Positions 1 to 10,618 of a stretch of DNA of 21,498 bases are shown here, piece by piece. Within the stretch, counting starts at the first letter, position 1, and every line of letters begins with the position of its first letter. Location: NCBI GenBank assembly GCA_012271065.1, contig JAAXHE010000104.1, forward strand, positions 7,411 through 28,908, given 5' to 3'. The notes under the pieces are model-generated. The model was not told the DNA's origin. It was given only the letters and a program-made list of their open reading frames with translations, and ran no database searches. The DNA comes from Candidatus Latescibacterota bacterium (GTDB lineage Bacteria; Latescibacterota; UBA2968; GCA-2709665). The position numbers were made by a program, and so were the translations under genes.

Positions 1-91
1 AGTCCCATCCTGCGATTCGGCGAGGGCGCGCAAAGCCGTATTTCGACCGCAAGGGCCGGCCGCAGCCCCGATGGGCTTTTTCAACGGGATG
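1..91 (-). repeat. MITE-like dispersed repeat, copy A (cut by window edge)
   Basis: Read on the minus strand, this begins with CATCCCGTTGAAAAAG, a near match to the terminal repeat of the copy at 10438-10583, and continues colinearly with it. A block at 12-31 is identical over 20 bases to 10498-10517, and the CTTGCGGTCGAA core is also shared. The copy runs off the left edge, so its other end is not visible. It lies just downstream of the glycoside hydrolase stop codon. Confidence 0.85.
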
Positions 92-114
92 CTAAAGTGG
101 ATGTCTGCATCCCT

Positions 115-2067
115 TCAATGGAGGTACCGCTCACGCAGGAACCTTGCGATCTCGCGAACGGTTGACTCCGTGCCTCGAATCGCGTCGTGGACCCGATTGT
201 GCCACGGCTCGGGCCCCAGCGTCTCCCGCCAGTGCCGGATCGCGGCGACGTTCGACGCGCCGGCTGCCTCGAGCGACTCAAGCGCCGCCCGAAGCTCCAT
301 CTGAACGTCCGGGTCGGCCAGGTCGCGCGTCGCCACCTTCTCCGCAACGCGATAGACGCCCCGGGCAAGCTCCACGTAGGTCATGACGACGCGAGTCTCG
401 TTGACGCAATCCGGGCTCTCGAATCCTGAAGCGATCTGAATCGCCCGGCGGCACGCGTCGACCTTTCCGTCAAAGGCGTACTCATTCTCGTAATAACGGA
501 ACATGCCCTCGCCGAGATACGGTCGCCGCTTACTCCGTACCATCTCGACCGCCTTTCCCCAGGAATAACAGACCGGAAAGTCAGAATCGTAGACATCGAA
601 CGCCACGGGCCCCAGTCGTTCGGACCAGTCCGCGAACGCCTCGACATCGACGTAGCCTTCCCGGGTTGCCCACGCGGCGGCGAACTCCCGCTCACTTCGT
701 CCTTTCAGGTTCCAGGAATACTCTGCGAGGGCCGCGACGTTGTACCCGCACGTCTCCCTGCCCTTGGTTACCCACGCCATCATTCCGAATGCGCCGCTGT
801 ATTGCCGCCGGATCAGATGGCCAACGTAGTTCCGGATCCGGTGCGGCGAGGACTGCGGCACCTTGAATTCGGGGGTTTCCACCCGCCCGTTGGCATTGAC
901 CGGCACGTCGTAGCTCGCGATCCACCGACCCTGCGACGCGTGGTAATCCAGGAGAGGATTGGCCGTCAGATCTCTGGGCAGATGCAGCACGCGTTCCATT
1001 TCGGCAGCGCAGGCGCGCCCGACCCTTACCTCCGGCGGCAACTCCGCAAGGACGCGGTAGTCCCGCTGCGACGTCGTGGTGGACAGAAAAATGCGAAGAT
1101 CGAATTCGGGAAACCGCGGGCGAATCCGCTTCCAGGCGTTGACAAACGCGCGGGCTTCGAGGACAAACTGCCCAAGCGCCGTGCAGTCGTCACACTCGCA
1201 CTGGGCGGGGCGTTCGGTCAGCCAGCAGCCCACCTCGGATGCGCCCTGGGCGGCGATATCCGCCATCCACTCTTCGAGAATGTCCACCAGCAGGGGATTT
1301 GAGGCGCACGGCGCCCGATGCTGATTGCCCTCCTTGTGGGCGAAGTACCTCCCGGCCAGCGCGCCGTCGCCCTTTCCCGCCAGCTCGGGATAAGCGCGGA
1401 ACAGGCCACGGTCATGCAGAAAATTCAAATGGGTGATGAGCGGCACATAGTTGAAACCGAGCAGACGCGCCTCTTCCATTAGCGCACGATCGATTCGGGC
1501 GCTGTTGGGTTTCCCGCGCACCACCGTCGACAGTTCCGTGGAGTCCATCTTGCCGTAGTTCAATTTCATCGACGCCATCCAGGGTATCCACTCCTCCGGC
1601 ATCGGAAAGTTCCACATGCCCCGTTCGTCCAGGTCCGGCCAATCGGTCACCGAAACGAGCGGAATACGGATGCTGTCGGGCGACAGATTCGGTTCAAGGA
1701 GTTGGCGAAGGGTCTGGGCCCCATACGTTATCCCGCGTTCAGACAAAGCGGCCAGTACCAGACGCCGTCCCTCGGGACGGATCGTGTATGCCTGCCGGCA
1801 ATTCGGCAATCCCTTCAGCCGTTCCGCATCCGGCCCGCTTTCAACGAGCCCGATCGAGATACTGAAAGCGCCGCCGACGGGTTTGGCGCCTTCCTCGCCG
1901 GGACACAGCGCTTCCAACATGGCTGCCGCACTTTTCTCCAACGCACCCGCTCCCGGCCTTAACGCTACCGAAACCGATTCCGGGCGGCATTCAACGTCAC
2001 CCTCGAACGTGATCTCATGTGGAAGCGGCAGCAGATATCGCTTCCATTGCTCGAAGCGATCTTCCAT
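115..2067 (-). CDS. GH20-related glycoside hydrolase (beta-N-acetylhexosaminidase-like, atypical catalytic region)
   Basis: A 650-residue protein without a signal peptide, so probably cytoplasmic. Residues about 15-135 look like the N-terminal GH20 domain 2 (zincin-like fold), ending in the typical RGITYGAQTLRQLL helix. Next comes the entry to a TIM barrel, VTDWPDLDERGMWNF (140-154), the usual GH20 barrel start. The expected GGDE acid/base motif is not found. Where it would be expected there is CWLTERPAQCECDDC (281-295), with a Glu and a C-x-C-x2-C cluster at C290, C292 and C295 that resembles motifs in related uncharacterised hydrolases. It probably acts on a hexosaminide or related glycan, but the substrate is inferred only from the N-terminal domain. 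The gene stands alone, divergent from the dUTPase gene. The ATG at 2067 is preceded by a weak GGTGGATGAGAG ribosome site. Confidence 0.75.
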   Translation of the reverse strand: MEDRFEQWKRYLLPLPHEITFEGDVECRPESVSVALRPGAGALEKSAAAMLEALCPGEEGAKPVGGAFSISIGLVESGPDAERLKGLPNCRQAYTIRPEGRRLVLAALSERGITYGAQTLRQLLEPNLSPDSIRIPLVSVTDWPDLDERGMWNFPMPEEWIPWMASMKLNYGKMDSTELSTVVRGKPNSARIDRALMEEARLLGFNYVPLITHLNFLHDRGLFRAYPELAGKGDGALAGRYFAHKEGNQHRAPCASNPLLVDILEEWMADIAAQGASEVGCWLTERPAQCECDDCTALGQFVLEARAFVNAWKRIRPRFPEFDLRIFLSTTTSQRDYRVLAELPPEVRVGRACAAEMERVLHLPRDLTANPLLDYHASQGRWIASYDVPVNANGRVETPEFKVPQSSPHRIRNYVGHLIRRQYSGAFGMMAWVTKGRETCGYNVAALAEYSWNLKGRSEREFAAAWATREGYVDVEAFADWSERLGPVAFDVYDSDFPVCYSWGKAVEMVRSKRRPYLGEGMFRYYENEYAFDGKVDACRRAIQIASGFESPDCVNETRVVMTYVELARGVYRVAEKVATRDLADPDVQMELRAALESLEAAGASNVAAIRHWRETLGPEPWHNRVHDAIRGTESTVREIARFLRERYLH

Positions 2068-2171
2068 CTCTCATCCACCCTTCGGAACGTGATTCGGCCG
2101 CGCCAGCACTGCGTTTTGCACGCGAACGCGTTGCCGTCTGCAGGCTTCGGTACGCGTTGAATTAACGTTGT

Positions 2172-2202
2172 ATATGATGACAACGAGGCACTGGAAAGTC
2201 AA
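2172..2202 (-). promoter_or_regulatory. Possible promoter of the glycoside hydrolase gene
   Basis: On the minus strand a TTGACT -35-like hexamer (2197-2202) is followed after 19 bases by TCATAT (2172-2177). The spacing is long and the -10 match is modest. It is supported mainly by its position about 105 bases upstream of the ATG and by the AT-rich stretch. Confidence 0.3.
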
Positions 2203-2255
2203 GCTATAACGGCAGTACGCATCGACGGATTTCCGCGTCAAACCCAGGAAAACTG

Positions 2256-2284
2256 TTGACAGCAATCCAGCCGATGGTTAATAT
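2256..2284 (+). promoter_or_regulatory. Sigma70-type promoter for the dUTPase gene
   Basis: A perfect TTGACA -35 box (2256-2261) is followed by a 17-base spacer and TAATAT (2279-2284) as -10. The predicted start of transcription is near 2291, about 20 bases before the inserted repeat copy at 2312-2410, so the repeat would be transcribed as part of the leader. Confidence 0.7.
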
Positions 2285-2311
2285 GGTCTCATCGACAAAC
2301 CGGCCTCCTGA

Positions 2312-2410
2312 CAGCCCGATTGAAGCGTCCTTCCGGGCTGCGGCCGGCCCTTGCGGTCAAAATACTGCGTTGCTCGGCCTCGCCTGCAGAGCGACTTTAT
2401 CCACGGATTG
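2312..2410 (+). repeat. MITE-like dispersed repeat, copy B (short form)
   Basis: The left end CAGCCCGATTGAAGCGTC and right end GACTTTATCCACGGATTG correspond to the inverted ends of the copy at 10438-10583. Internal blocks CTTGCGGTC, ACTGCGTTG and CTGCAGAGCGACTTT (2384-2398) are shared. Compared with that copy it lacks roughly 45 central bases. It lies between a consensus promoter and the dUTPase coding region. Confidence 0.85.
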
Positions 2411-2427
2411 CCAAAGGAATCGCGACG

Positions 2428-2877
2428 CTGGGCGAGCATGTAAAGAAAATTCAGATCAGCAGAGTGGACCCGTCGCTCCCTCTGCCGCGCCATCAGACAC
2501 CCGGCTCGGTCGGATTCGATCTGCTCTGCAGGAAGGACATCGTTGTCCCACCGGGTGAAATCCGTTTGGTCCCGGTCAATCTCATCGTTGCCGTTCCGCC
2601 GGGGTACATGCTCCTGCTTGCGGCCCGAAGCAGCCTGCCGCACAGGAAGGGCCTGATGGTACCGAATGGCGTCGGCATTGTCGATCAGGACTACCGCGGA
2701 CCGAACGATGAGATCCACATCCAGGTCTATAACTTCACAGACAGTCCGGTAAACGTCCGGCGCCGTGAACGGCTCGCGCAGGGGATATTCGTTCGCATCG
2801 TCCAGGCCGACTGGGATGAAGCCGAACACCTCGGGGCAGCCGACCGGGGCGGGTTCGGCAGCACCGGACAAGAGTGA
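2428..2877 (+). CDS. dut: dUTPase (deoxyuridine 5'-triphosphate nucleotidohydrolase)
   Basis: Hydrolyses dUTP to dUMP and pyrophosphate, keeping uracil out of DNA and supplying dUMP for thymidylate synthesis; the family works as a trimer. All five family motifs are seen in order: TPGSVGFDLL, ARSSLPHRKGL, GVGIVDQDYRG with the catalytic Asp, RERLAQGIF, and the C-terminal RGGFGSTGQ that closes over the nucleotide. The start is uncertain. There is no in-frame ATG. The frame opens at TTG 2320, but that lies in repeat copy B. I prefer CTG 2428, which has AAAGGA nine bases upstream and gives 149 residues, the normal family size. ATT 2449 and GTG 2464 are alternatives, although GTG would remove the usual first beta strand (KIQISRVD). 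Ends 250 bases before ispH on the same strand. Confidence 0.88.
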   Translation: MGEHVKKIQISRVDPSLPLPRHQTPGSVGFDLLCRKDIVVPPGEIRLVPVNLIVAVPPGYMLLLAARSSLPHRKGLMVPNGVGIVDQDYRGPNDEIHIQVYNFTDSPVNVRRRERLAQGIFVRIVQADWDEAEHLGAADRGGFGSTGQE

Positions 2878-3044
2878 GAAGCGAAAGCAACAGCCACAAC
2901 GTCTCCGGGCGCGGGGATGCGACGACCTTCAGAAGCTGCATCAAAATTTCCAGCGGTCTTCGCGCGGCTGCAAACGCGTCGGTCTGCGTTGGTCGAATCC
3001 ACCCAGAGAGGCGAGGGGCGCGCAGCCTCGATACATCTAGATAG

Positions 3045-3058
3045 GGGCGAATTCGCCC
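3045..3058. other. Perfect 14-bp palindrome between dut and ispH
   Basis: GGGCGAATTCGCCC is fully self-complementary and sits about 70 bases before the ispH start. It has no loop and no following T tract, so it is not a normal intrinsic terminator. It could be an operator or simply chance. Confidence 0.4.
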
Positions 3059-3128
3059 GCCTGGACCGACACCCTTTCGCTCGCGCTCGGGAGCGCACCG
3101 GGAATTTTGATACTGCTTCTCACCATCT

Positions 3129-4352
3129 ATGGCACGCAAATTCGACATACCCGACTTCTACAAGAGTCCCGTCATTGCGCGCGTGAAGGCGTACAGACAG
3201 ATGCAGGACATGCGCAAACGGGATCTGTCGCCCTCAGTACTCGACTTCGGCCCGGTCCGGTTTCTGCTGGCCCGTCATTTCGGGTTCTGCTTCGGCGTGG
3301 AAAACGCGATCGAAATCGCTTACAAGACGCTCGATGAACACCCGGACCGGCGCATCTATTTCCTTAACGAAATGATTCACAATCCCAACGTCAACAACGA
3401 CCTGAAAGACAGGGGCGTGGAGTTCATATTCGATCCGTACGGAATGCAGCTCATCCCATGGAATTACCTTGCGCCGGAAGACATCGTCGTGGTGCCCGCG
3501 TTCGGCACCACCGTTGAAATCCAGGATGCCCTTGCGTCCCGCGGCATTGACGCCTACACCTACAACACGACCTGCCCCTTTGTGGAGCGGGTCTGGAACC
3601 GGAGCGCCAAACTGGGTGAGTCGGGATTCTCCGTGGTCGTACACGGCAACGATGCCCACCAGGAAACACGCGCTACCTTCTCTCACAGTGTACGAAACGC
3701 GGCGACGGTCGTGGTACTGGATCTCCAGGAGTCACACGTTCTTGCCGACGTCATCCGTGGGGCGGAGGGCCGCGGTGTTTTCTTCGAGCACTTCGGCCAC
3801 AAATGCTCGGAAGGCTTCGATCCGGACCGAGACCTCCAGCGCATCGGAATCGTCAATCAGACGACCATGCTGGCCACCGAAACGCGGCGCATCGCGAAGA
3901 TTCTGCGCGGCGCCCTTGCGGACCGTTACGGAGAAGAAAACATCCAGAAGCACTACGCCGACACTTCGGATACCCTGTGCTACGCAACCAACGAAAACCA
4001 GAACGCGACTTACGTCCTCGTCGAGCAGGAGGCGGACCTGGCGCTGGTCGTCGGCGGATACAACTCCTCCAACACGTCGCACATCGTGGAACTCTGCCTC
4101 GAACGGATGCCCACCTATTTCATCAAAGACGCGGACGAAATCCGTTCGGAATCCCTTATCCGCCACTACAACCTGGAGACAAAAAAAGCCGCCCTTACGA
4201 CGGACTGGCTGCCTGACAAACGCCCCCTGAGCGTTGCGCTGACGTCCGGCGCTTCGTGTCCCGACGCCATTGTCGATGCCGTGCTCCTGCGCGTTCTCTC
4301 CTTTTTCGAACCCACCCGTTCCCTCGACGACGTCCTCGCCTGCTACGCGTGA
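3129..4352 (+). CDS. ispH: 4-hydroxy-3-methylbut-2-enyl diphosphate reductase, long plant/cyanobacterial type
   Basis: Last enzyme of the MEP isoprenoid pathway; it reduces HMBPP to IPP and DMAPP with a 4Fe-4S cluster. The three cluster cysteines are visible: C54 in HFGFCFGVENAI, C149 in YNTTCPFVERVW and C377 in TSGASCPDAIV. Further family marks are NEMIHNPNVN (substrate His H84), HGNDAHQETRAT and SNTSHIVEL. At 407 residues it is about 90 longer than the E. coli type, with an N-terminal extension and inserts. It has PAFG where the E. coli enzyme has a substrate-binding His-Gly pair, as I recall is usual in the plant and cyanobacterial branch. The ATG has no strong ribosome site. It is convergent with the M16 gene pair; the 132 bases between them hold no clear gene. 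Confidence 0.95.
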   Translation: MARKFDIPDFYKSPVIARVKAYRQMQDMRKRDLSPSVLDFGPVRFLLARHFGFCFGVENAIEIAYKTLDEHPDRRIYFLNEMIHNPNVNNDLKDRGVEFIFDPYGMQLIPWNYLAPEDIVVVPAFGTTVEIQDALASRGIDAYTYNTTCPFVERVWNRSAKLGESGFSVVVHGNDAHQETRATFSHSVRNAATVVVLDLQESHVLADVIRGAEGRGVFFEHFGHKCSEGFDPDRDLQRIGIVNQTTMLATETRRIAKILRGALADRYGEENIQKHYADTSDTLCYATNENQNATYVLVEQEADLALVVGGYNSSNTSHIVELCLERMPTYFIKDADEIRSESLIRHYNLETKKAALTTDWLPDKRPLSVALTSGASCPDAIVDAVLLRVLSFFEPTRSLDDVLACYA

Positions 4353-4484
4353 ACGGACGGACCCGAATCACAAGTCCGGCGCCCTGGAAGCCGATCTCTT
4401 CGTTGAAGCCGACATAAACCCACAGGTGCATCTTCTGTCCCGCCACCGCCCCGGACAGGCGTCGCCCAACCGTGACCTCGCCCG

Positions 4485-5717
4485 TCAGATTGACGTCAAC
4501 GGCCCGAGCGCCACCACCGCCGGCTCGCAATGGAGAGGGAAACGCTCCAGGTATTCGGCGATCCGTTTCGGTGTAACGGCGTCGATCTCGGCCAACTCTT
4601 CTTCAAGCGTCTTCAACGGCGTATCCGTACTCAGGCTTCCAACGATCTGTGAGAAACGCCTGAGCCCGTGTTCGCCGCCGACCACCAGCGCTGTCGCCTG
4701 CTTGGTCCTGGACCTGGCGAGGGCATCTCCGTCCACACCCGCCTTCAACTCTTCGATTTCTCTCCGCACGATCTCGAGGACCCGCGGGACGTTTTCCGGG
4801 TCGACGGAGACATACACGTAGAACAGACCGGTATCGCTGAAACCGTAGAAGTCCGCCGAGGCCTCGTCAGCCAGCCCCTTCTGGACAACCGACCAGAACA
4901 GACGGCTGTTGCTGGACGCGCCGAGATAGTGGGCGAGCAGATCCGCGGTCGTCGCCCATTCATCCGAGTCGCGGGGCCCGGGATACGCCATGGCGATATG
5001 CTCGCGGATCACGTTCGGGCGCTCCACCACGCGTGTGGTCGGGTGGAATACAGGTTCCACCTGCTGCCGTATCGCCTTCCGCGGTTCCCATCCGCCGCAA
5101 TGGGTTTCAGCCGCGCGAATCATTGAGTCCCTATCGAATCTGCCGGTAACGACGAGCGTCATATTGTCCGGCGCATATCGCCTGTCGAAATAATCCGCCA
5201 TCTGCTCCCGGGAGATTGATCCGATCGAGTCCTCGGTTCCCAGTACGCTCTGTCCGAGCGGGTGCCCCGCGAAAACCTCCTGAATCAGTTCGTCGATAAT
5301 CAGCGCGTCCGGCCGGTCACGATACATCGCGATCTCTTCCAGGATGACCTTCTTCTCCATGTCGAACTGGTCTTCCGGGATCGTAGGCCGCATCATGTCT
5401 GCAAGGATTTCGGCTGAGCTCTCGGCACGCTCGCTCTGCACCCAGTGAAAATATGCGGCGCCCTCCCACCAGGTATAAGCGTTCCACATTGCGCCAAGGT
5501 CGTCGACGTCCAGACTCAGCTGGCGCCAGTCGCGTTTTTTCGTACCCTTGAAACACATGTGCTCGAGGAAGTGCGACACGCCTGCAAGTTCCGGCGGTTC
5601 GTCGCGCGAGCCGGCGTGTACATAGAATCCGAGCGCCGCCGAGTTGATCCTTGGAATCGACTCGAACACCAGTTGAAGTCCGTTATCGAGCGTATGGGTG
5701 GAAAACGGTGACTGCAT
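4485..5717 (-). CDS. M16B zinc peptidase, catalytic (HxxEH-bearing) subunit
   Basis: A 410-residue insulinase/processing-peptidase family protein. The inverted zinc motif is intact: HFLEH (H49, E52, H53) in GVSHFLEHMCFKGT, with the third ligand at E127/E128 in VILEEIAMY, the normal distance of about 75 residues. The second half has SNSRLFWSVVQKGLADEAS at the place where homologues carry the REKRGLAY motif, so the Arg/Tyr pair that binds substrate appears to be missing. That pair is supplied by the product of the gene 31 bases upstream. The two are inferred to form a heterodimer like mitochondrial processing peptidase and bacterial two-subunit M16B enzymes. There is no signal peptide. The ATG at 5717 has an excellent CAGGAG ribosome site. 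The natural substrate cannot be told from the sequence. Confidence 0.9.
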   Translation of the reverse strand: MQSPFSTHTLDNGLQLVFESIPRINSAALGFYVHAGSRDEPPELAGVSHFLEHMCFKGTKKRDWRQLSLDVDDLGAMWNAYTWWEGAAYFHWVQSERAESSAEILADMMRPTIPEDQFDMEKKVILEEIAMYRDRPDALIIDELIQEVFAGHPLGQSVLGTEDSIGSISREQMADYFDRRYAPDNMTLVVTGRFDRDSMIRAAETHCGGWEPRKAIRQQVEPVFHPTTRVVERPNVIREHIAMAYPGPRDSDEWATTADLLAHYLGASSNSRLFWSVVQKGLADEASADFYGFSDTGLFYVYVSVDPENVPRVLEIVRREIEELKAGVDGDALARSRTKQATALVVGGEHGLRRFSQIVGSLSTDTPLKTLEEELAEIDAVTPKRIAEYLERFPLHCEPAVVALGPLTSI

Positions 5718-5748
5718 TCAAATCTCCTGTGAATCTTCGCCGGACCTG

Positions 5749-6987
5749 CTATGACTTCAATGCCCGGGGCCCAAGGGTCACGATCGTGGAAGGAGACGGC
5801 GGGAAAGCCTCCAGGGAGGCTGGGATCCGGTCCAATGTCACGCCGTCTATTCCCTCCGCAATCTGCTGTATGGAACGCGGTCGCCCATCGATGAACAAAC
5901 CGTCCATCATACTGCCCACGCGACCTTCAGGCAAATCGCCTGACGTGAACAACTGACCCTTCAGGACGGTCTTCGCCCGGTCGAGTTCGGCCTGCGTCAC
6001 ATCCTCCGCGACTCGCCCCAACTCTCTCCGGCATACGGAAAGGGTCTCGTCGGCGCGGTCAGCCGTGGCGCCGGCGTAAAGCGCAATCATGCCGCCGCCG
6101 CGACGGGCGCGATAAGAGGCCGATACGCTGTACGCCAGCCCCCGCTTCTCCCTTACCTCCGTGAACAGCCTGCTGGATCCGCTGCCGGAAAGTACGGTAA
6201 CCGCGAGCTGGGTCGGGTAGAAGAGCGTGTGACCCCGTGGCGCGGACTCGAAGAGCAGACAAATGTGCGCCTGTTCGGACTGTTTGGTATGGTGTACCTC
6301 CCGGTCGGCCACGGAGATCGGCTGTGGAACCGGTGGCGGGGGCCCGGACCTCGTCCAGCCGCCGAACGCCTCGTCAGCCGCCCGGAACATCGCGTCCGTC
6401 TCTAGGCCGCCGGCCACGGAGATCAGAAGTCGCTGCGGGCTGCAGTACCGCCGCCAGAACTCGCGCACGTGTTCCGGGGCGATCGCTGCTATTTTCGGGG
6501 CTTCTCCCAGAGGATTGCGCCCCATCGGATCCCCCAATCCCGCCAGGTAGGTCATATACAGAACCTGGTGGGTCGGATTGTCTTCCAGGCGTTTGAGCTC
6601 TTCCAGTGCTAGCGTTTTCGCCACGTCAACCTGCTCGTCCGGAAAGGATGCGCTGCGAAATACCTCGGCGTAGAGTCTCATGCCCTCCGGGAAATGCCTG
6701 GGCAGGAGCTGGGCCTGGAACTCGGTGAATTCGACGGCCGTCGCCGAGCCGCGGCGCGCGCCCAGGGAATCGAAAGCGTCGTAGATCGAGCGCGCGTCGC
6801 GATTCGGCGTTCCCTTGAGAAGCGTTTCTTCCGCAACCCAGGCCAACCCGAGCCGATCGGCGGGATCGTCCCGCGCTCCGAAGCCGAATCGGAAGGCAAC
6901 AACAACGGATTGGGCGCCGGGCATGGACTCGGCAACGACTTCAATCCCGTTCTTCAAGGTGTGCCGCTGCGGTTCAACGGAATGCAT
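5749..6987 (-). CDS. M16B peptidase-like protein, non-zinc-binding subunit
   Basis: A 412-residue M16 family protein in which HxxEH has become WVAEE (W50 to E54, in LGLAWVAEETLLKGT), so both histidines are gone and zinc cannot be bound normally. It keeps the second-half motif GSSRLFTEVREKRGLAYSV with the Arg/Tyr pair used for substrate binding. It complements the downstream gene at 4485-5717, which has the zinc site but lacks this pair. The start is set at ATG 6987, which has GGAAGG six bases upstream. The frame stays open to 7233, but that extension lies in the promoter region and has no family counterpart. First gene of a two-gene minus-strand operon with a 31-base gap. A periplasmic or cytoplasmic site cannot be decided; no signal peptide is visible from this start. 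Confidence 0.9.
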   Translation of the reverse strand: MHSVEPQRHTLKNGIEVVAESMPGAQSVVVAFRFGFGARDDPADRLGLAWVAEETLLKGTPNRDARSIYDAFDSLGARRGSATAVEFTEFQAQLLPRHFPEGMRLYAEVFRSASFPDEQVDVAKTLALEELKRLEDNPTHQVLYMTYLAGLGDPMGRNPLGEAPKIAAIAPEHVREFWRRYCSPQRLLISVAGGLETDAMFRAADEAFGGWTRSGPPPPVPQPISVADREVHHTKQSEQAHICLLFESAPRGHTLFYPTQLAVTVLSGSGSSRLFTEVREKRGLAYSVSASYRARRGGGMIALYAGATADRADETLSVCRRELGRVAEDVTQAELDRAKTVLKGQLFTSGDLPEGRVGSMMDGLFIDGRPRSIQQIAEGIDGVTLDRIPASLEAFPPSPSTIVTLGPRALKS

Positions 6988-7063
6988 AGTCAACCTTCCA
7001 TGAAAATACCCTAGTGGGAAGCCCGTTTCCACCTGGAGGAGTGCTAATAAACACGGACGACGG

Positions 7064-7090
7064 AATATAGGATACGGAACGTATAGACAA
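7064..7090 (-). promoter_or_regulatory. Possible promoter of the M16 gene pair
   Basis: On the minus strand TTGTCT (7085-7090), a 15-base spacer and TATATT (7064-7069) lie about 75 bases upstream of the ATG at 6987. The -10 is strong, but the spacing is short and an overlapping TTTACT / TATCCT pair is an alternative. Confidence 0.4.
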
Positions 7091-7185
7091 AAGTAAAACA
7101 TGGCGACAATTCGACATTTCCGAACCTGGTCAAGTCCTGGACCCGCGCGGGCCCCGATATATAGCCCCGCAATCCATCTTTCCAC

Positions 7186-7214
7186 TTGACACAGACCCAC
7201 CCATTGTCTAATTT
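7186..7214 (+). promoter_or_regulatory. Promoter of the lysine biosynthesis operon
   Basis: A perfect TTGACA (7186-7191) is followed by TCTAAT (7207-7212, spacer 15) or TAATTT (7209-7214, spacer 17). Either predicts transcription starting near 7219-7222, just before the riboswitch at 7230. This arrangement supports both calls. Confidence 0.65.
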
Positions 7215-7229
7215 GTTTGATTCCGAAAG

Positions 7230-7406
7230 GCAAGGGTAGAGGCGCAGGTTTTCAAGAGTACCCGGTGAATGCGAGGCGAAACCAGCGCACCGGTGAAAGG
7301 GTAAACCTGCCGAAGCCCCGATTCTGTTCCGCCACAGAAAGGGGCTGGTCCAATCGGATAAGATCCGCTGGACTGTCACGGAATGCTCCGTGGAGTGCTC
7401 TCTTGC
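7230..7406 (+). promoter_or_regulatory. Lysine riboswitch (L box)
   Basis: The conserved L-box blocks occur in the right order: GGTAGAGGCGC, TTTCAAGAGTA, GGTGAAAGGGTAA, CTGCCGAAGC, GGGGCTGG, CTGTCACGG and GTGGAGTGCTCTC. The closing P1 helix can form between GCAAGGG (7230-7236) and CTCTTGC (7400-7406), and P5 between CACGG (7377-7381) and CCGTG (7388-7392). These blocks match the B. subtilis lysC leader as I recall it. It is followed by an intrinsic terminator, so lysine binding is expected to stop transcription of dapA and the genes behind it. Confidence 0.93.
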
Positions 7407-7428
7407 GCCATCCATGCTGGAACTTGCA

Positions 7429-7474
7429 CGGCCGGCCTTGCCTCCATCCCCATCGGGAACCGGCTGTTTTTTTT
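7429..7474 (+). terminator. Riboswitch-controlled intrinsic terminator
   Basis: CGGCCGG (7429-7435) pairs with CCGGCTG (7460-7466), including one G-U pair, with a small inner stem TCCC/GGGA, and is followed directly by eight T residues (7467-7474). It lies 23 bases after the riboswitch and 55 bases before the dapA start, as expected for attenuation by the lysine aptamer. Confidence 0.88.
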
Positions 7475-7477
7475 GTT

Positions 7478-7493
7478 ATACCCTGATGGGTAT
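7478..7493 (+). other. Small hairpin in the dapA leader
   Basis: ATACCC (7478-7483) and GGGTAT (7488-7493) form a six-pair stem with a TGAT loop between the attenuator terminator and the dapA ribosome site. No T tract follows. It may have no function of its own or may stabilise the read-through mRNA. Confidence 0.35.
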
Positions 7494-7529
7494 TCCGGTT
7501 TCCACTATTTCAATACTGGAGGTGACCCC

Positions 7530-8567
7530 ATGTTATTCAGCGGATGTTACACGGCCCTCATCACACCCCTGGACGCCGACAAAGGCGTGGATGAACCAGG
7601 GCTGGAAAAACTCGTCCAATTCCAGATTTCACAGGGAGTAAGCGGAGTCCTCGCAGTGGGCACCACCGGCGAGAGTCCAACCCTCAACAGTGGAGAGCAC
7701 AACAGCGTCACGGAACGGGTCTGCGCGCTGGCCAGCGGGGAATGCCGGGCTATCGCCGGCACCGGTGGAAATTCCACCGAGGAGACCCTTCGCGCAACGG
7801 ATCACGCCGCACACGCCGGCGCAGATACGGCGCTGCTGGTCGATCCGTATTACAACGGCCCCAGTTCGCTCGAAATCCGCCGTGAATACGTCGCGCCCGT
7901 TGCCGAAGCTTTCCCGGAAATTCAGATGGTTTCCTATGTCATTCCGGGCCGCTCGGGAACGAAACTGCTCCCCGAAGACCTGGCCATCCTGCACCGCGAC
8001 TTCGGAAACGTCAACACCGTGAAAGAAGCAACGGGCGACCTGGAGAATATGGCCCGGACGCGTGAAGTCTGCGGAGACAGCTTCTACATTCTCTCCGGTG
8101 ACGACGACATCACCTACGCCATGATGACCGACGCCCGCATCGGCGCATCCGGCGTCATCTCCGTCATGTCCAACGTGGTTCCCGGTCCCATTCAGCGATT
8201 CACGCAGGCGATTCTCAGGAGAGACATGACCGAAGCGGATCGGCTGGCGGATGCGCTCAAGCCCCTTTTCGGAATGGTCACGGTCCTGTCGGATGAAGAA
8301 ACGCCCTTCGGGACGACACAGGTCAAAGCCCGTAACCCGGTGCCCATAAAAACCCTGATGAACATACTTGGCATGCCGGCCGGTCCGTGCCGGCGGCCGC
8401 TGGGCAGAATGAACCACGACGGTCTGAAACAGGTGCTTGAAATCGCGCGAACCGTTCAGCACAACAACCCTGAACTGTTCGCACCCATCGAACGATTTTT
8501 CAACGTGGACATATCAAGTCGTGTCGCGGACGCCTCGGTTCTCCAGGATCTGGCGTACGCAGACTGA
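7530..8567 (+). CDS. dapA: 4-hydroxy-tetrahydrodipicolinate synthase, C-terminally extended
   Basis: Condenses pyruvate with aspartate semialdehyde, the first committed step to diaminopimelate and lysine. Family residues are present: GTTGE (T45, T46), DPYYNGPS (Y107/Y108), SYVIPGRSG with Y136 and R141, and the Schiff-base lysine K165 in NTVKEATGDL. The lysine riboswitch upstream makes the lysine assignment far safer than for most members of this aldolase family. At 345 residues it is about 50 longer than the usual 290-300; the extra length is at the C-terminus (about 295-345), with no motif I recognise. The start is ATG 7530 with GGAGGT seven bases before it; the frame is open to 7383, but that stretch is riboswitch and terminator. 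First gene of an operon with pckG and dapB; its stop abuts repeat copy C. Confidence 0.95.
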   Translation: MLFSGCYTALITPLDADKGVDEPGLEKLVQFQISQGVSGVLAVGTTGESPTLNSGEHNSVTERVCALASGECRAIAGTGGNSTEETLRATDHAAHAGADTALLVDPYYNGPSSLEIRREYVAPVAEAFPEIQMVSYVIPGRSGTKLLPEDLAILHRDFGNVNTVKEATGDLENMARTREVCGDSFYILSGDDDITYAMMTDARIGASGVISVMSNVVPGPIQRFTQAILRRDMTEADRLADALKPLFGMVTVLSDEETPFGTTQVKARNPVPIKTLMNILGMPAGPCRRPLGRMNHDGLKQVLEIARTVQHNNPELFAPIERFFNVDISSRVADASVLQDLAYAD

Positions 8568-8617
8568 CAGCCACAAGAATCGGCCGCAGCCCGGATGCCC
8601 TCTTTCAACCGGTTGTT
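8568..8617 (-). repeat. MITE-like dispersed repeat, copy C (partial, one end)
   Basis: Read on the minus strand, this region (AACAACCGGTTGAAAGAG, then GGGCTGCGGCCG and a degenerate CTTGTGGCTG) aligns with the left end of the copies at 2312 and 10438. Only about 50 bases of one end remain, up to the dapA stop codon. Its orientation is opposite to copy D on the other side of pckG. Confidence 0.7.
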
Positions 8618-8643
8618 AACCAGCGAATTCTGGAAGGAGTCGA

Positions 8644-10437
8644 ATGAGAAACGCAAGTACCACAAACCACAAGCTGCTGACATGGGTCGATGACGCAGCG
8701 AAACTCTGCCAACCGAAAGACATCTACTGGTGCAACGGTTCAAGTGAAGAGTACGATCGCCTTGCCGACCTGCTGTGCAGCGCAGGGACGTTCACCCGCC
8801 TGAATCCGGACCTTCGCCCCAACAGCTTTCTGGCCCGCTCGGATGCGGGGGACGTCGCCCGCGTGGAAGACCGCACCTACATCTGTACACCTGACGAAGA
8901 GGACGTGGGCCCCACCAACAACTGGCGGGAGCCGGTCGAGATGAAACGCACGTTGAAGGGTCTGTTTGCCGGATCCATGCGCGGAAGGACCATGTACGTC
9001 ATCCCGTTTTCCATGGGCCCCGTCGGTTCGCCGACATCCAAGATCGGCGTGGAGATCTCGGATTCGCCGTATGTCGTGTGCAGCATGCATATTATGACCC
9101 GAACGGGCGACGCCGTGCTGAACGCCCTGGGCGACGGCGAATTCCTTCCCTGCCTGCATTCGGTGGGCGCACCGCTCGAGCCGGGAGAGAAAGACGTCTC
9201 ATGGCCCTGTGACGCAGATCAGAAATACATCGTTCACTTTCCCGACGAGCCTTCCATCTGGTCCTACGGCTCGGGCTACGGCGGCAATGCGCTGCTCGGT
9301 AAAAAGTGTTTCGCGCTTCGCATCGCCTCGACAATGGCGCGCGACGAAGGATGGATGGCCGAACATATGCTCATCCTGGGTCTCACGTCGCCCGAGAACC
9401 GGAAACATTACATCGGCGCAGCCTTTCCTTCCGCGTGCGGCAAAACGAACCTGGCCATGCTGCAGCCCACGGTCCCGGGCTGGAAAGCCAATTGCGTCGG
9501 CGACGATATCGCATGGATGCGCCAGGGTCCCGATGGCGCGCTCCGCGCGATCAACCCGGAGGCCGGATTCTTCGGCGTCGCTCCCGGCACCAGCCTTAAG
9601 TCCAACGGTCACGCCATGGCCGCCCTTGAAGAGAACTCCCTGTTCACGAACACCGCGCTGACCCCGGAAGGCGACGTGTGGTGGGAAGAGATGACAGACG
9701 ACCCGCCGGCCCGGCTGGAAGACTGGCTCGGACGAGCGTGGACACCGGCGTCGGATGACAACGCCTCGAACCCCAACGCGAGGTACACCGCCCCCGCCGC
9801 ACAGTGCCCCGTCATCGATCCTGAATGGGAAAACCCGGACGGGGTGCCCATGTCCGCGTTCATTTTCGGCGGTCGCCGCTCCACGGTCGTACCTCTGGTA
9901 TTCGAAGCATTGAACTGGACGCACGGCGTTTTCCTGGGCTCCATCATGGCGTCCGAAACCACGGCCGCCGCCGCGGGCGCCGTAGGCAAGCTGCGGAGAG
10001 ATCCCTTTGCGATGCTTCCCTTCTGCGGCTATAATATGGGCGACTATTTCAGACACTGGTTCAAGATCGGCGCCATGCTGGACGGCAACGCGCCCAGAAT
10101 CTTCTACGTGAACTGGTTCCGAAAAGACGCCGAAGGGAACTGGCTCTGGCCGGGATTCGGCGAGAACAGCCGCGTGCTCAAGTGGATCTGCGAGCGGATA
10201 GACGGCGCCGCCGACGCGATCGAAACGCCGATCGGCTATGTGCCCACGCCCGAAGCCCTTGATCTCGACGGACTTGACATCCCGGAGGCCGACGTTGAAG
10301 AGCTGCTTTCCGTGGACCCGGACGCCTGGCGCGCCGAACTGCCCGACATCCGCGACTTCTACGCGGGATTTGGAAATCGACTACCGGTGGAACTGCTGAC
10401 CGAACTCAACGCCCTCGAGGAGCGGCTGAACGCATAG
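8644..10437 (+). CDS. pckG: Phosphoenolpyruvate carboxykinase (GTP)
   Basis: Interconverts oxaloacetate plus GTP with PEP, CO2 and GDP in gluconeogenesis or anaplerosis. The 597-residue length is normal for the GTP family. The P-loop is [12 protein letters not shown] (258-269), the metal-binding kinase-2 motif is GDDIAW (286-291), followed by [14 protein letters not shown]. The [14 protein letters not shown] segment and the [13 protein letters not shown] segment are also typical. AAGGAG lies just upstream of the ATG. The gene stands between dapA and dapB, an uncommon place, and is flanked by repeat copies C and D in opposite orientation; copy D starts right after its stop codon. It would be read from the lysine-riboswitch promoter. 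A link to lysine synthesis through oxaloacetate/aspartate and PEP/pyruvate is possible, but it is inference. Confidence 0.96.
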
Positions 10438-10583
10438 CAGCCCGTTGGAAAAGTCCATCCGGGGTAGGGCCGGACCTTGCGGTCGAACTACTGCGTTGCG
10501 CGCCCTCGCCGAATCGCTGGATGGGATTCGGTCGCGCGTCATGTCTTCAGCCTCGACTGCAGAGCGACTTTCTCAACGGACTG
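10438..10583 (+). repeat. MITE-like dispersed repeat, copy D (most complete)
   Basis: Bounded by imperfect 18-bp terminal inverted repeats: CAGCCCGTTGGAAAAGTC (10438-10455) and GACTTTCTCAACGGACTG (10566-10583), which match at 15 of 18 positions. It shares an exact 20-base block with copy A (10498-10517) and a 15-base block with copy B (10557-10571). It fills most of the pckG-dapB gap. It encodes no protein I recognise; the open frame upstream of dapB that passes through it has no family similarity. Confidence 0.88.
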
Positions 10584-10618
10584 ACAGGGACCGGACGGAA
10601 CACCGGCGGAGAATCCAC

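What the first reader, a model, noticed from the sequence alone, without database searches (positions are those of the whole stretch)
1..10583. Dispersed MITE-like repeat family with four copies in one 10.6 kb stretch
Copies at 1-91 (minus), 2312-2410 (plus), 8568-8617 (minus, partial) and 10438-10583 (plus) share long blocks: an exact 20-base match between 12-31 and 10498-10517, and an exact 15-base match between 2384-2398 and 10557-10571. The best copy has 18-bp terminal inverted repeats matching at 15 of 18 positions. Copies differ by loss of a central segment (B lacks about 45 bases that D has) or by loss of one end (C). All copies sit in intergenic DNA and none encodes a transposase. This is the design of a non-autonomous element mobilised in trans, or of a repeated structured RNA/REP-type element. 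I do not recognise it as a named family.
Basis: partly seen in the sequence, partly recalled or inferred. Interest (0 to 1): 0.8.

Follow-up and report, generated by a model that had tools for sequence, protein, structure and literature searches.

The report
Small transposon hitchhikers in uncultured bacteria
The four repeats are copies of a tiny "hitchhiker" transposon that cannot move by itself but has spread to roughly a hundred places in the genomes of a group of uncultured bacteria, apparently using the enzyme of a larger mobile element with the same ends; a new family of an ordinary kind.

Summary
The four stretches are copies of one ~160-bp, imperfectly palindromic family with ends CAGYCCGTTGAWAAAG. 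The nearest held genome, G001 (98% identical over PEPCK), has 236 such ends against 15 for a reversed control. It is a MITE, not a structured RNA or REP: 4-bp YTAN target duplications (65 of 141 copies exact, shuffled mean 13.0); sites B and D, and A on its visible flank, empty in G001; no excess of compensating changes. Among 64 genomes of the phylum the end occurs in one genus and in two MAGs of another family of the class. The probable mover is an IS1182-like transposase group: a 1,513-bp insertion sequence on a viral contig and a decayed 1,177-bp relative in the same genus share the MITE's ends and YTAR-type target. No intact partner was seen in the four genus genomes, and the window's own assembly is not held. 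One third of copies (40 of 120) abut the stop codon of a long open frame. New family of a known kind; moderate interest.

The parts
1..91 (-). MITE copy A, cut by the window edge; right-hand end 76-91, followed by CTAA at 92-95
   Evidence: right flank aligns to G001, G002, G003 and G004 without the element
2308..2311 (.). left target-site copy of B (CTGA; right copy CCAA at 2411-2414, two of four bases equal)
2312..2410 (+). MITE copy B, complete 99-bp deletion form, upstream of the dUTPase gene
   Evidence: site empty in G001 and G004; same 99-bp form with the same junction at three other sites
8568..8615 (-). MITE copy C, old and internally deleted, starting right after the dapA stop codon (8565-8567); TTAA at 8616-8619
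   Evidence: shared with G001, absent in G003 and G004, longer relative at the same place in G002
10434..10437 (+). left target-site copy of D (ATAG), containing the PEPCK stop codon TAG
10438..10583 (+). MITE copy D, complete 146-bp form
   Evidence: site empty in G001
10584..10587 (.). right target-site copy of D (ACAG, one base from ATAG)

Best explanation
[quoted passage not shown] The usual form is 160 bp, with a common 146-bp and rarer 58- to 324-bp forms, an imperfect palindrome bounded by CAGYCCGTTGAWAAAG. A transposase made elsewhere binds these ends, cuts the element out or copies it, and inserts it at a YTAN site, making a 4-bp duplication. The shared ends, the duplication and the empty sites are shown; the cut or copy step and the action in trans are inferred. 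The mover is most likely a DUF772/DDE transposase of an IS1182-like group whose elements have the same kind of ends and the same 4-bp YTAR-type target. One decayed relative with these ends lies in the same genus. Because YTAR holds TAA or TAG, many copies land on stop codons, which the duplication keeps intact.
For: Copy number: 40 scored matches of 80-89% identity in G001 plus one 19-nt piece (40 of 138 candidates scored); 236 ends versus 15 control. Target duplications: 32 of 84 exact 4-mers versus shuffled mean 6.4, maximum 15 in 2000; 65 of 141 versus 13.0, maximum 24 in 2000; the outer duplication positions agree in 67 and 62 of 84, reached by 0 of 2000 shuffles, while the two inner, nearly fixed ones (T, A) agree no more often than shuffled. 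Empty sites: B and D, and A on its visible side, lack the element in G001. Partner: L150 5023-6535 carries CAGCCCGTTGAAAAAGTC at its left end, one mismatch at the right, TTAG on both sides, and DUF772 plus DDE domains in its two pieces. L252 1176-2352 in G004 has 16-bp ends that fit the MITE pattern without mismatch, CTAG/ATAG flanks and a frame-shifted relative of L150's transposase (59% identity, E 3.5e-80). Relatives L255, L258, L259 and L260 have CAG-type ends and identical 4-mers outside (TTAG, TTAG, GTAG, CTAA); L261 has CTAA/CTAG.
Against: No intact partner was found in the four genus genomes. PF01609, PF05598 and PF13546 searches gave no element with these ends, but they also missed the decayed G004 relative, whose longest frame has no Pfam match, so they are not sensitive; the protein search hit 1 of 47 class genomes. 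The window's own assembly is not held. MITE and IS share only the 16-18-bp ends, not the interior. 76 of 141 copies lack an exact 4-mer duplication, and neither B nor D in the window has one. Three of the seven plasmid relatives examined (of 17 records) showed no clear CAG ends. Shared ends do not prove mobilisation.
Confidence: 0.88

Rival explanations
1. A MITE as above, but moved by a different, unseen insertion sequence with a YTAR target, for example one of the IS5 subgroup proper; the likeness of the ends to the DUF772 elements reflects shared ancestry only.
For: E. coli IS5 makes YTAR duplications (passages of PMC10359306). No intact partner was seen in the genus, while B and D are present in the window and absent in G001.
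Against: The decayed element in G004 has ends that fit the MITE pattern without mismatch and relatives of its transposase share the kind of ends and target. The PF01609 and PF05598 matches found in G001-G004 were not flanked by these ends on both sides.
Confidence: 0.12
2. A repeated structured RNA or REP/RAYT-type palindrome kept for a function in transcripts.
For: The consensus folds into a long hairpin; folded as DNA, copy D is more stable than its shuffles (z -2.6, 2 of 200 as good) and B slightly so (z -1.7, 13 of 200). Pairs of the hairpin are kept in 95.9% of cells, against 34-42% when one side is slid, as a hairpin taken from the consensus of near-identical copies would be in any case.
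Against: On 46 copies (45 distinct) pairs change on both sides in 2 pairs against 2.4 in shuffles, and covariation is 0.031 against 0.031. Of 160 variant cells 110 break a pair, 47 keep it by a change on one side, 3 on both. Copies A and C are no more stable than shuffles. No Rfam match over the copies. The 4-bp duplications and empty sites are not expected of REP (recalled).
Confidence: 0.02
3. A fossil family: once mobile, now inert everywhere, its copies being lost from G001 rather than gained in the window.
For: Only a decayed partner was found in the genus; copy C is old and degraded, and G003 and G002 keep an end-like scrap at site B.
Against: B and D are missing in G001 at clean junctions and G004 has no MITE at either place. 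The 46 aligned 160-bp copies are on average 96% identical to their consensus.
Confidence: 0.15

Closest known systems
MITEAba12 of Acinetobacter and its parent ISAba12 (PMC6382973; passages seen)
   Same: Short non-coding element with inverted ends like those of a resident IS and the same target-duplication length as the IS, hence thought to be moved in trans.
   Different: 113 bp, 9-bp duplications and other 16-bp ends; there the proposed parent is resident in the same strain and a new insertion was observed.
Small mobile repeats of bacteria such as Correia, RUP and RPE (review PMC2229807; passages seen)
   Same: Under 200 bp, no protein, most with inverted ends, TA at the ends and duplications.
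   Different: Described as mostly A+T-rich; this family is G+C-rich and long-palindromic, with a 4-bp YTAN duplication.
IS1182 family, for example IS1272 (PMC5678879; passages seen) and NCBIfam NF033551
   Same: IS1182 is the best NCBIfam match of the partner's two pieces and of four intact plasmid relatives; DUF772 domain.
   Different: All six scores (53.7 and 91.4 bits for the pieces, 157.7-180.4 for the intact relatives) are below the 270-bit cut-off. IS1272 is reported to replace palindromes without duplications, whereas this group shows 4-bp YTAR-type duplications.
IS5 (YTAR target; passages of PMC10359306)
   Same: 4-bp YTAR duplication; one relative of the partner (plasmid pLB1) is annotated as IS5 family.
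   Different: E. coli IS5 ends (recalled) are not of the CAG...GTTGA type; NCBIfam IS5 models score lower than IS1182 and below their cut-offs.

Membership tests
MITE | short (about 50-600 bp) and without a transposase | tested here: met
   58-324 bp, 67 of 141 copies 160 bp; the forms aligned hold only MITE arms, small hairpins or a second palindrome
MITE | terminal inverted repeats | tested here: met
   CAGYCCGTTGAWARAG at both ends with at most 3 mismatches defines the set, so this is by construction for the set; D has 15 of 18
MITE | target-site duplications | tested here: met
   65 of 141 exact 4-mers versus 13.0 shuffled; 32 of 84 versus 6.4
MITE | multiple dispersed copies | tested here: met
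   236 ends versus 15 control in G001
MITE | filled and empty sites between relatives | tested here: met
   B and D empty in G001; A on its visible side only
MITE | shares ends and target with an autonomous-type element | tested here: met
   L150 and L252, both with broken frames, and intact relatives with related ends
MITE | intact autonomous partner in the same genome | tested here: inconclusive
   no relative in G001-G003, a decayed one in G004; the window's assembly is not held
Structured RNA family | compensatory base changes beyond chance | tested here: not met
   2 pairs versus 2.4 shuffled; covariation score equal to shuffles
REP/BIME moved by a RAYT | no target duplication (recalled) | tested here: not met
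   4-bp duplications present
REP/BIME moved by a RAYT | RAYT (Y1) transposase in the genome | not tested
   not searched
IS1182 family (for the partner transposase) | passes the curated NF033551 cut-off of 270 bits | tested here: not met
   pieces of L150 53.7 and 91.4 bits; intact relatives L258, L259, L260, L261 178.2, 157.7, 180.4 and 180.2 bits
IS1182 family (for the partner transposase) | DUF772 plus DDE domains | tested here: met
   L150 pieces: PF05598 61.4, PF01609 32.3, PF13751 29.8 bits; intact L258: 69.4, 41.2, 29.8. The decayed L252 frame (265 aa) has no Pfam match at 0.001

The most novel reading that the evidence does not exclude
The family is adapted to gene ends. Its YTAR target falls on stop codons, and the 4-bp duplication leaves the stop codon in place while adding a 160-bp palindrome as a new 3' tail to the transcript. 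It could thus fill a compact genome without breaking genes and serve as a mobile 3' end.
Probability: 0.2. Interest if true: 0.5.

Novelty: new member of a known kind. Interest (0 to 1): 0.38.

Why it matters
It adds a high-copy MITE family in Latescibacterota-like bacteria. None of the titles listed by my paper searches describes it (one search listed 15 of 905 papers and 15 of 36; open-licence papers only). It ties the family to a transposase group by matching ends and target. It also points to an IS1182-like group that makes 4-bp YTAR-type duplications, unlike IS1272, which is reported to make none. The stop-codon bias is a simple, testable account of how such elements can reach about a hundred copies in a compact genome.

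Tried and rejected
(1) PF01609, PF05598 and PF13546 transposases in the genus as partners: 2 of 4, 3 of 4 and 0 of 4 genus genomes have matches (PF13546 also 1 match in G036); within the loci fetched none lies between two MITE ends, though one DUF772 frame (L070) has a complete MITE beside it. (2) End pairs 0.5-4 kb apart in the loci held then, most of them only 3-8 kb long: one pair of 2,996 bp (L198). (3) Single ends in the NP952 and UBA8231 MAGs as ends of full elements: beyond them I saw, by eye, ordinary-looking frames, an N gap or the contig end, no transposase (frames not searched). (4) Three weak matches in G024, G028 and G047 (E 6e-4 to 8e-4) carry no such ends (one locus has a single end-like site with 2 mismatches about 370 bases away) and were set aside. 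(5) Structured RNA: not supported. (6) Hypervariable palindrome centre as a sign of hairpin-tip processing: column 81 has the highest entropy (1.79 bits) and most inferred changes. When other variable columns are left out of the tree in the same way they reach 14-24 changes against 26-30 for column 81 and 19-20 for column 80, so the effect is weak and I do not rest on it. (7) The stop-codon bias was first counted on 74 copies (28) and then on 120 (40). The control YTAR sites (138 of 849) include sites inside genes, some overlapping loci and only TAA/TAG stops, while copies may also count TGA; frames of at least 150 codons stand in for genes; orthologous copies are counted apart. So the Fisher p of 2.4e-5 is rough. 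(8) Set make-up: one search gave 85 copies, two of them from NP952 (L043, L081); one search dropped L043; one search dropped all NP952/UBA8231 loci and copies within 15 bases of a locus edge, giving 141, of which only D is from the window (B has too many mismatches in one end, A is cut, C incomplete). (9) Only one bundle of 20 genome stretches was taken, so no genus genome was scanned base by base for partners.
Full report
What is there. Repeat search in the window recovers all four copies, with A/D at 87% over 92 nt, A/B at 81% over 73 nt, B/D at 82% and 85% over two blocks, and A/C at 78% over 49 nt. Reading the ends against relatives corrects the limits: A ends at 91 and continues beyond the window; B is complete at 2312-2410 (99 bp); C is 8568-8615; D is complete at 10438-10583 (146 bp). 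B lies upstream of a dUTPase gene, C directly after the dapA stop codon, D directly after the PEPCK stop codon and before dapB.

Copy number and spread. The window's own assembly is not held; the nearest genome, G001, shares 60% of the window's 31-mers and is 98% identical over the PEPCK gene. In G001 copy D finds 40 scored matches of 80-89% identity plus one 19-nt piece (40 of 138 candidates scored). The end CAGYCCGTTGAWARAG with up to 2 mismatches occurs 236 times against 15 for the reversed control, so by my estimate roughly 110 elements. With the exact pattern CAGNCCGTTGAWAAAGNC, 6 of 64 genomes of the phylum have the end: the four of the genus (97 to 127 each), G030 (8) and G036 (1), with no control hit in any; the class search agrees, 6 of 47. 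By whole-element search 9 of 60 relatives match; the three beyond these six (G024, G028, G047) are weak, E 6e-4 to 8e-4, and lack the ends. In the named collection all 95 stretches come from six MAGs (80 shown, all 95): RHO1_bin_28, RHO2_bin_5 and RHO3_bin_7 (titled Gemmatimonadota), 277c_44 and UBA8231 (titled Candidatus Latescibacterota) and NP952 (titled Gemmatimonadetes). The tool warns that records very near the window may be left out. That RHO stands for the sponge Rhopaloeides is my guess; a paper on that sponge reports Latescibacteria among its MAGs (abstract passage of PMC13224822).

Anatomy. 85 distinct copies (two from NP952), later 141 in the genus plus the window, have both ends. 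Of the 141, 67 are 160 bp, 17 are 146 bp, 8 are 324 bp, and 58- and 99-bp forms occur four times each. The 46 aligned 160-bp copies are on average 96% identical to their consensus. The two arms differ in type (X...CCATCCGGGC; Y...TCGCTCTGCAGG) but pair into one long hairpin. The deletion forms appear to move too: four 58-bp and four 99-bp copies lie between different flanks, three of these eight with exact duplications, and three of the four 99-bp copies share B's junction. The two 324-bp copies aligned, from G001, contain a second, unrelated palindrome in one arm.

Target duplications. On 84 copies, 32 have identical 4-mers on both sides against a shuffled mean of 6.4 (maximum 15 in 2000); the outer two positions agree in 67 and 62 of 84, more than in any of 2000 shuffles, the inner two (mostly T and A) no more than shuffled, and no exact repeat of 5 to 7 bases is seen. 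On 141 copies it is 65 against 13.0 (maximum 24). The commonest are TTAG, CTAA and TTAA. 76 of 141 are not exact, and neither B (CTGA/CCAA) nor D (ATAG/ACAG) is; I read this as decay.

Filled and empty sites. In G001 the sites of B and D are empty at clean junctions; A's right flank also lacks the element, but its left flank lies outside the window. D: GCGTAG-GAACC in G001 against GCATAG-[D]-ACAGGGACC in the window. G004 also lacks B. G003 and G002 keep a short end-like scrap at site B, so an older event there cannot be excluded. At D's place G002, G003 and G004 hold longer other DNA. C is shared with G001, absent in G003 and G004, and a longer relative is at that place in G002. In turn, a G003 copy (L118 3086-3245) is missing in the window and G001, where its flanks adjoin within 3 bases. 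A G002 copy upstream of dapA is missing in the window, G001, G003 and G004, but there 33-42 other bases lie between the matching flanks, so the junction is not clean.

Not a structured RNA. On 46 copies (45 distinct), 2 pairs change on both sides against 2.4 in shuffles and the covariation score equals its shuffles; 110 of 160 variant cells break a pair. Folded as DNA, D is more stable than its shuffles (z -2.6), B slightly (z -1.7), A and C are not. Rfam finds only a lysine riboswitch elsewhere in the window at gathering scores.

The mover. A scan of viral contigs for a slightly wider end gave 10 loci. One, L150, has paired ends 1,513 bp apart (5023-6535): CAGCCCGTTGAAAAAGTC at the left, one mismatch at the right, TTAG outside both. 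Its two open frames, parted by an in-frame stop codon, match DUF772 and DDE domains and, below the cut-off, NCBIfam IS1182; four intact plasmid relatives also score below it, 157.7-180.4 of 270 bits. The C-terminal piece finds a relative in 1 of 47 class genomes, G004, at 59% identity. That relative is frame-shifted and lies inside L252 1176-2352, between CAGTCCGTTGATAAAG and CAGTCCGTTGAAAAAG, with CTAG and ATAG outside. Its 265-aa frame has no Pfam match, which is why the Pfam searches of the genus passed it by. Beyond the 16 bases MITE and IS do not match, so I take these to be the IS's own ends and not two half MITEs. Of seven plasmid relatives examined (of 17 records found), L258, L259 and L260 have CAG-type ends with identical 4-mers outside (TTAG, GTAG, CTAA), L261 has CTAA/CTAG, and L256, L257 and L262 gave no clear ends; the viral L255 has TTAG on both sides. 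So ends, target and duplication length agree between the MITE and this transposase group. The same kind of inference was made for MITEAba12 and ISAba12 (passages of PMC6382973). What is inferred, not shown: that this transposase moves the MITE, and that it still does. No intact partner was seen in four genus genomes; multi-copy IS are often lost from metagenome assemblies (recalled), so absence is weak evidence.

Gene ends. Among 120 copies with at least 700 bases on both sides (of 141), 40 have a stop codon at the target site that ends a frame of 150 or more open codons; among 849 YTAR sites in the same kind of DNA, 138 do (Fisher p 2.4e-5). The likely reason is plain: in G+C-rich, gene-dense DNA a YTAR site that can be hit without harm is often a stop codon, and the duplication keeps it. 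The control includes sites inside genes, so this does not show a preference beyond selection.

Novelty. A new family of MITE, of a known kind. The partner group differs from the IS1272 type of the IS1182 family, for which replacement of palindromes without duplication is reported (passages of PMC5678879). The YTAR target is that of IS5 (passages of PMC10359306). None of the titles listed by my paper searches describes it (one search listed 15 of 905, 15 of 36).

Noticed in passing
window 7229-7408 (+): Lysine riboswitch RF00168 (90.5 bits, gathering 30) upstream of dapA (7530-8567).
   Followed up: no
L120 (G002) 8899-9058: In G002 a 160-bp MITE sits between the T-run after the lysine riboswitch region and the dapA start; the window lacks it there. 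It may alter control of dapA.
   Followed up: partly
L107 547-870, L108 507-830 (G001): These 324-bp forms hold a second, unrelated palindrome with ends near GTGTYCCG...CGGAAATA inside one arm; in all, 8 of 141 copies are 324 bp, the other six not read.
   Followed up: partly
L113, L114, L115, L106 (G004): In 277c_44 the X arm of these copies carries an extra GC-rich hairpin of about 28 bp (GCCTGCCTGTGCGGTGCACGCAGACAGGC).
   Followed up: no
alignment A2, columns 80-81: The two bases at the exact centre of the palindrome are among the most variable (column 81 entropy 1.79 bits, highest of 160); a matched control weakens the claim of a hotspot.
   Followed up: partly
L149 1324-1483; L155 1287-1440: Two viral contigs hold possible short elements with related ends (CAGGCTGTTGAAAAAG; the second end of each has 3 mismatches), 160 and 154 bp apart, so similar MITEs may be widespread.
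   Followed up: no
L043, L081, L092 (G030, MAG NP952): A diverged sister family with ends CAGCCCGTTGATAAAG but a different interior in another family of the class.
   Followed up: partly
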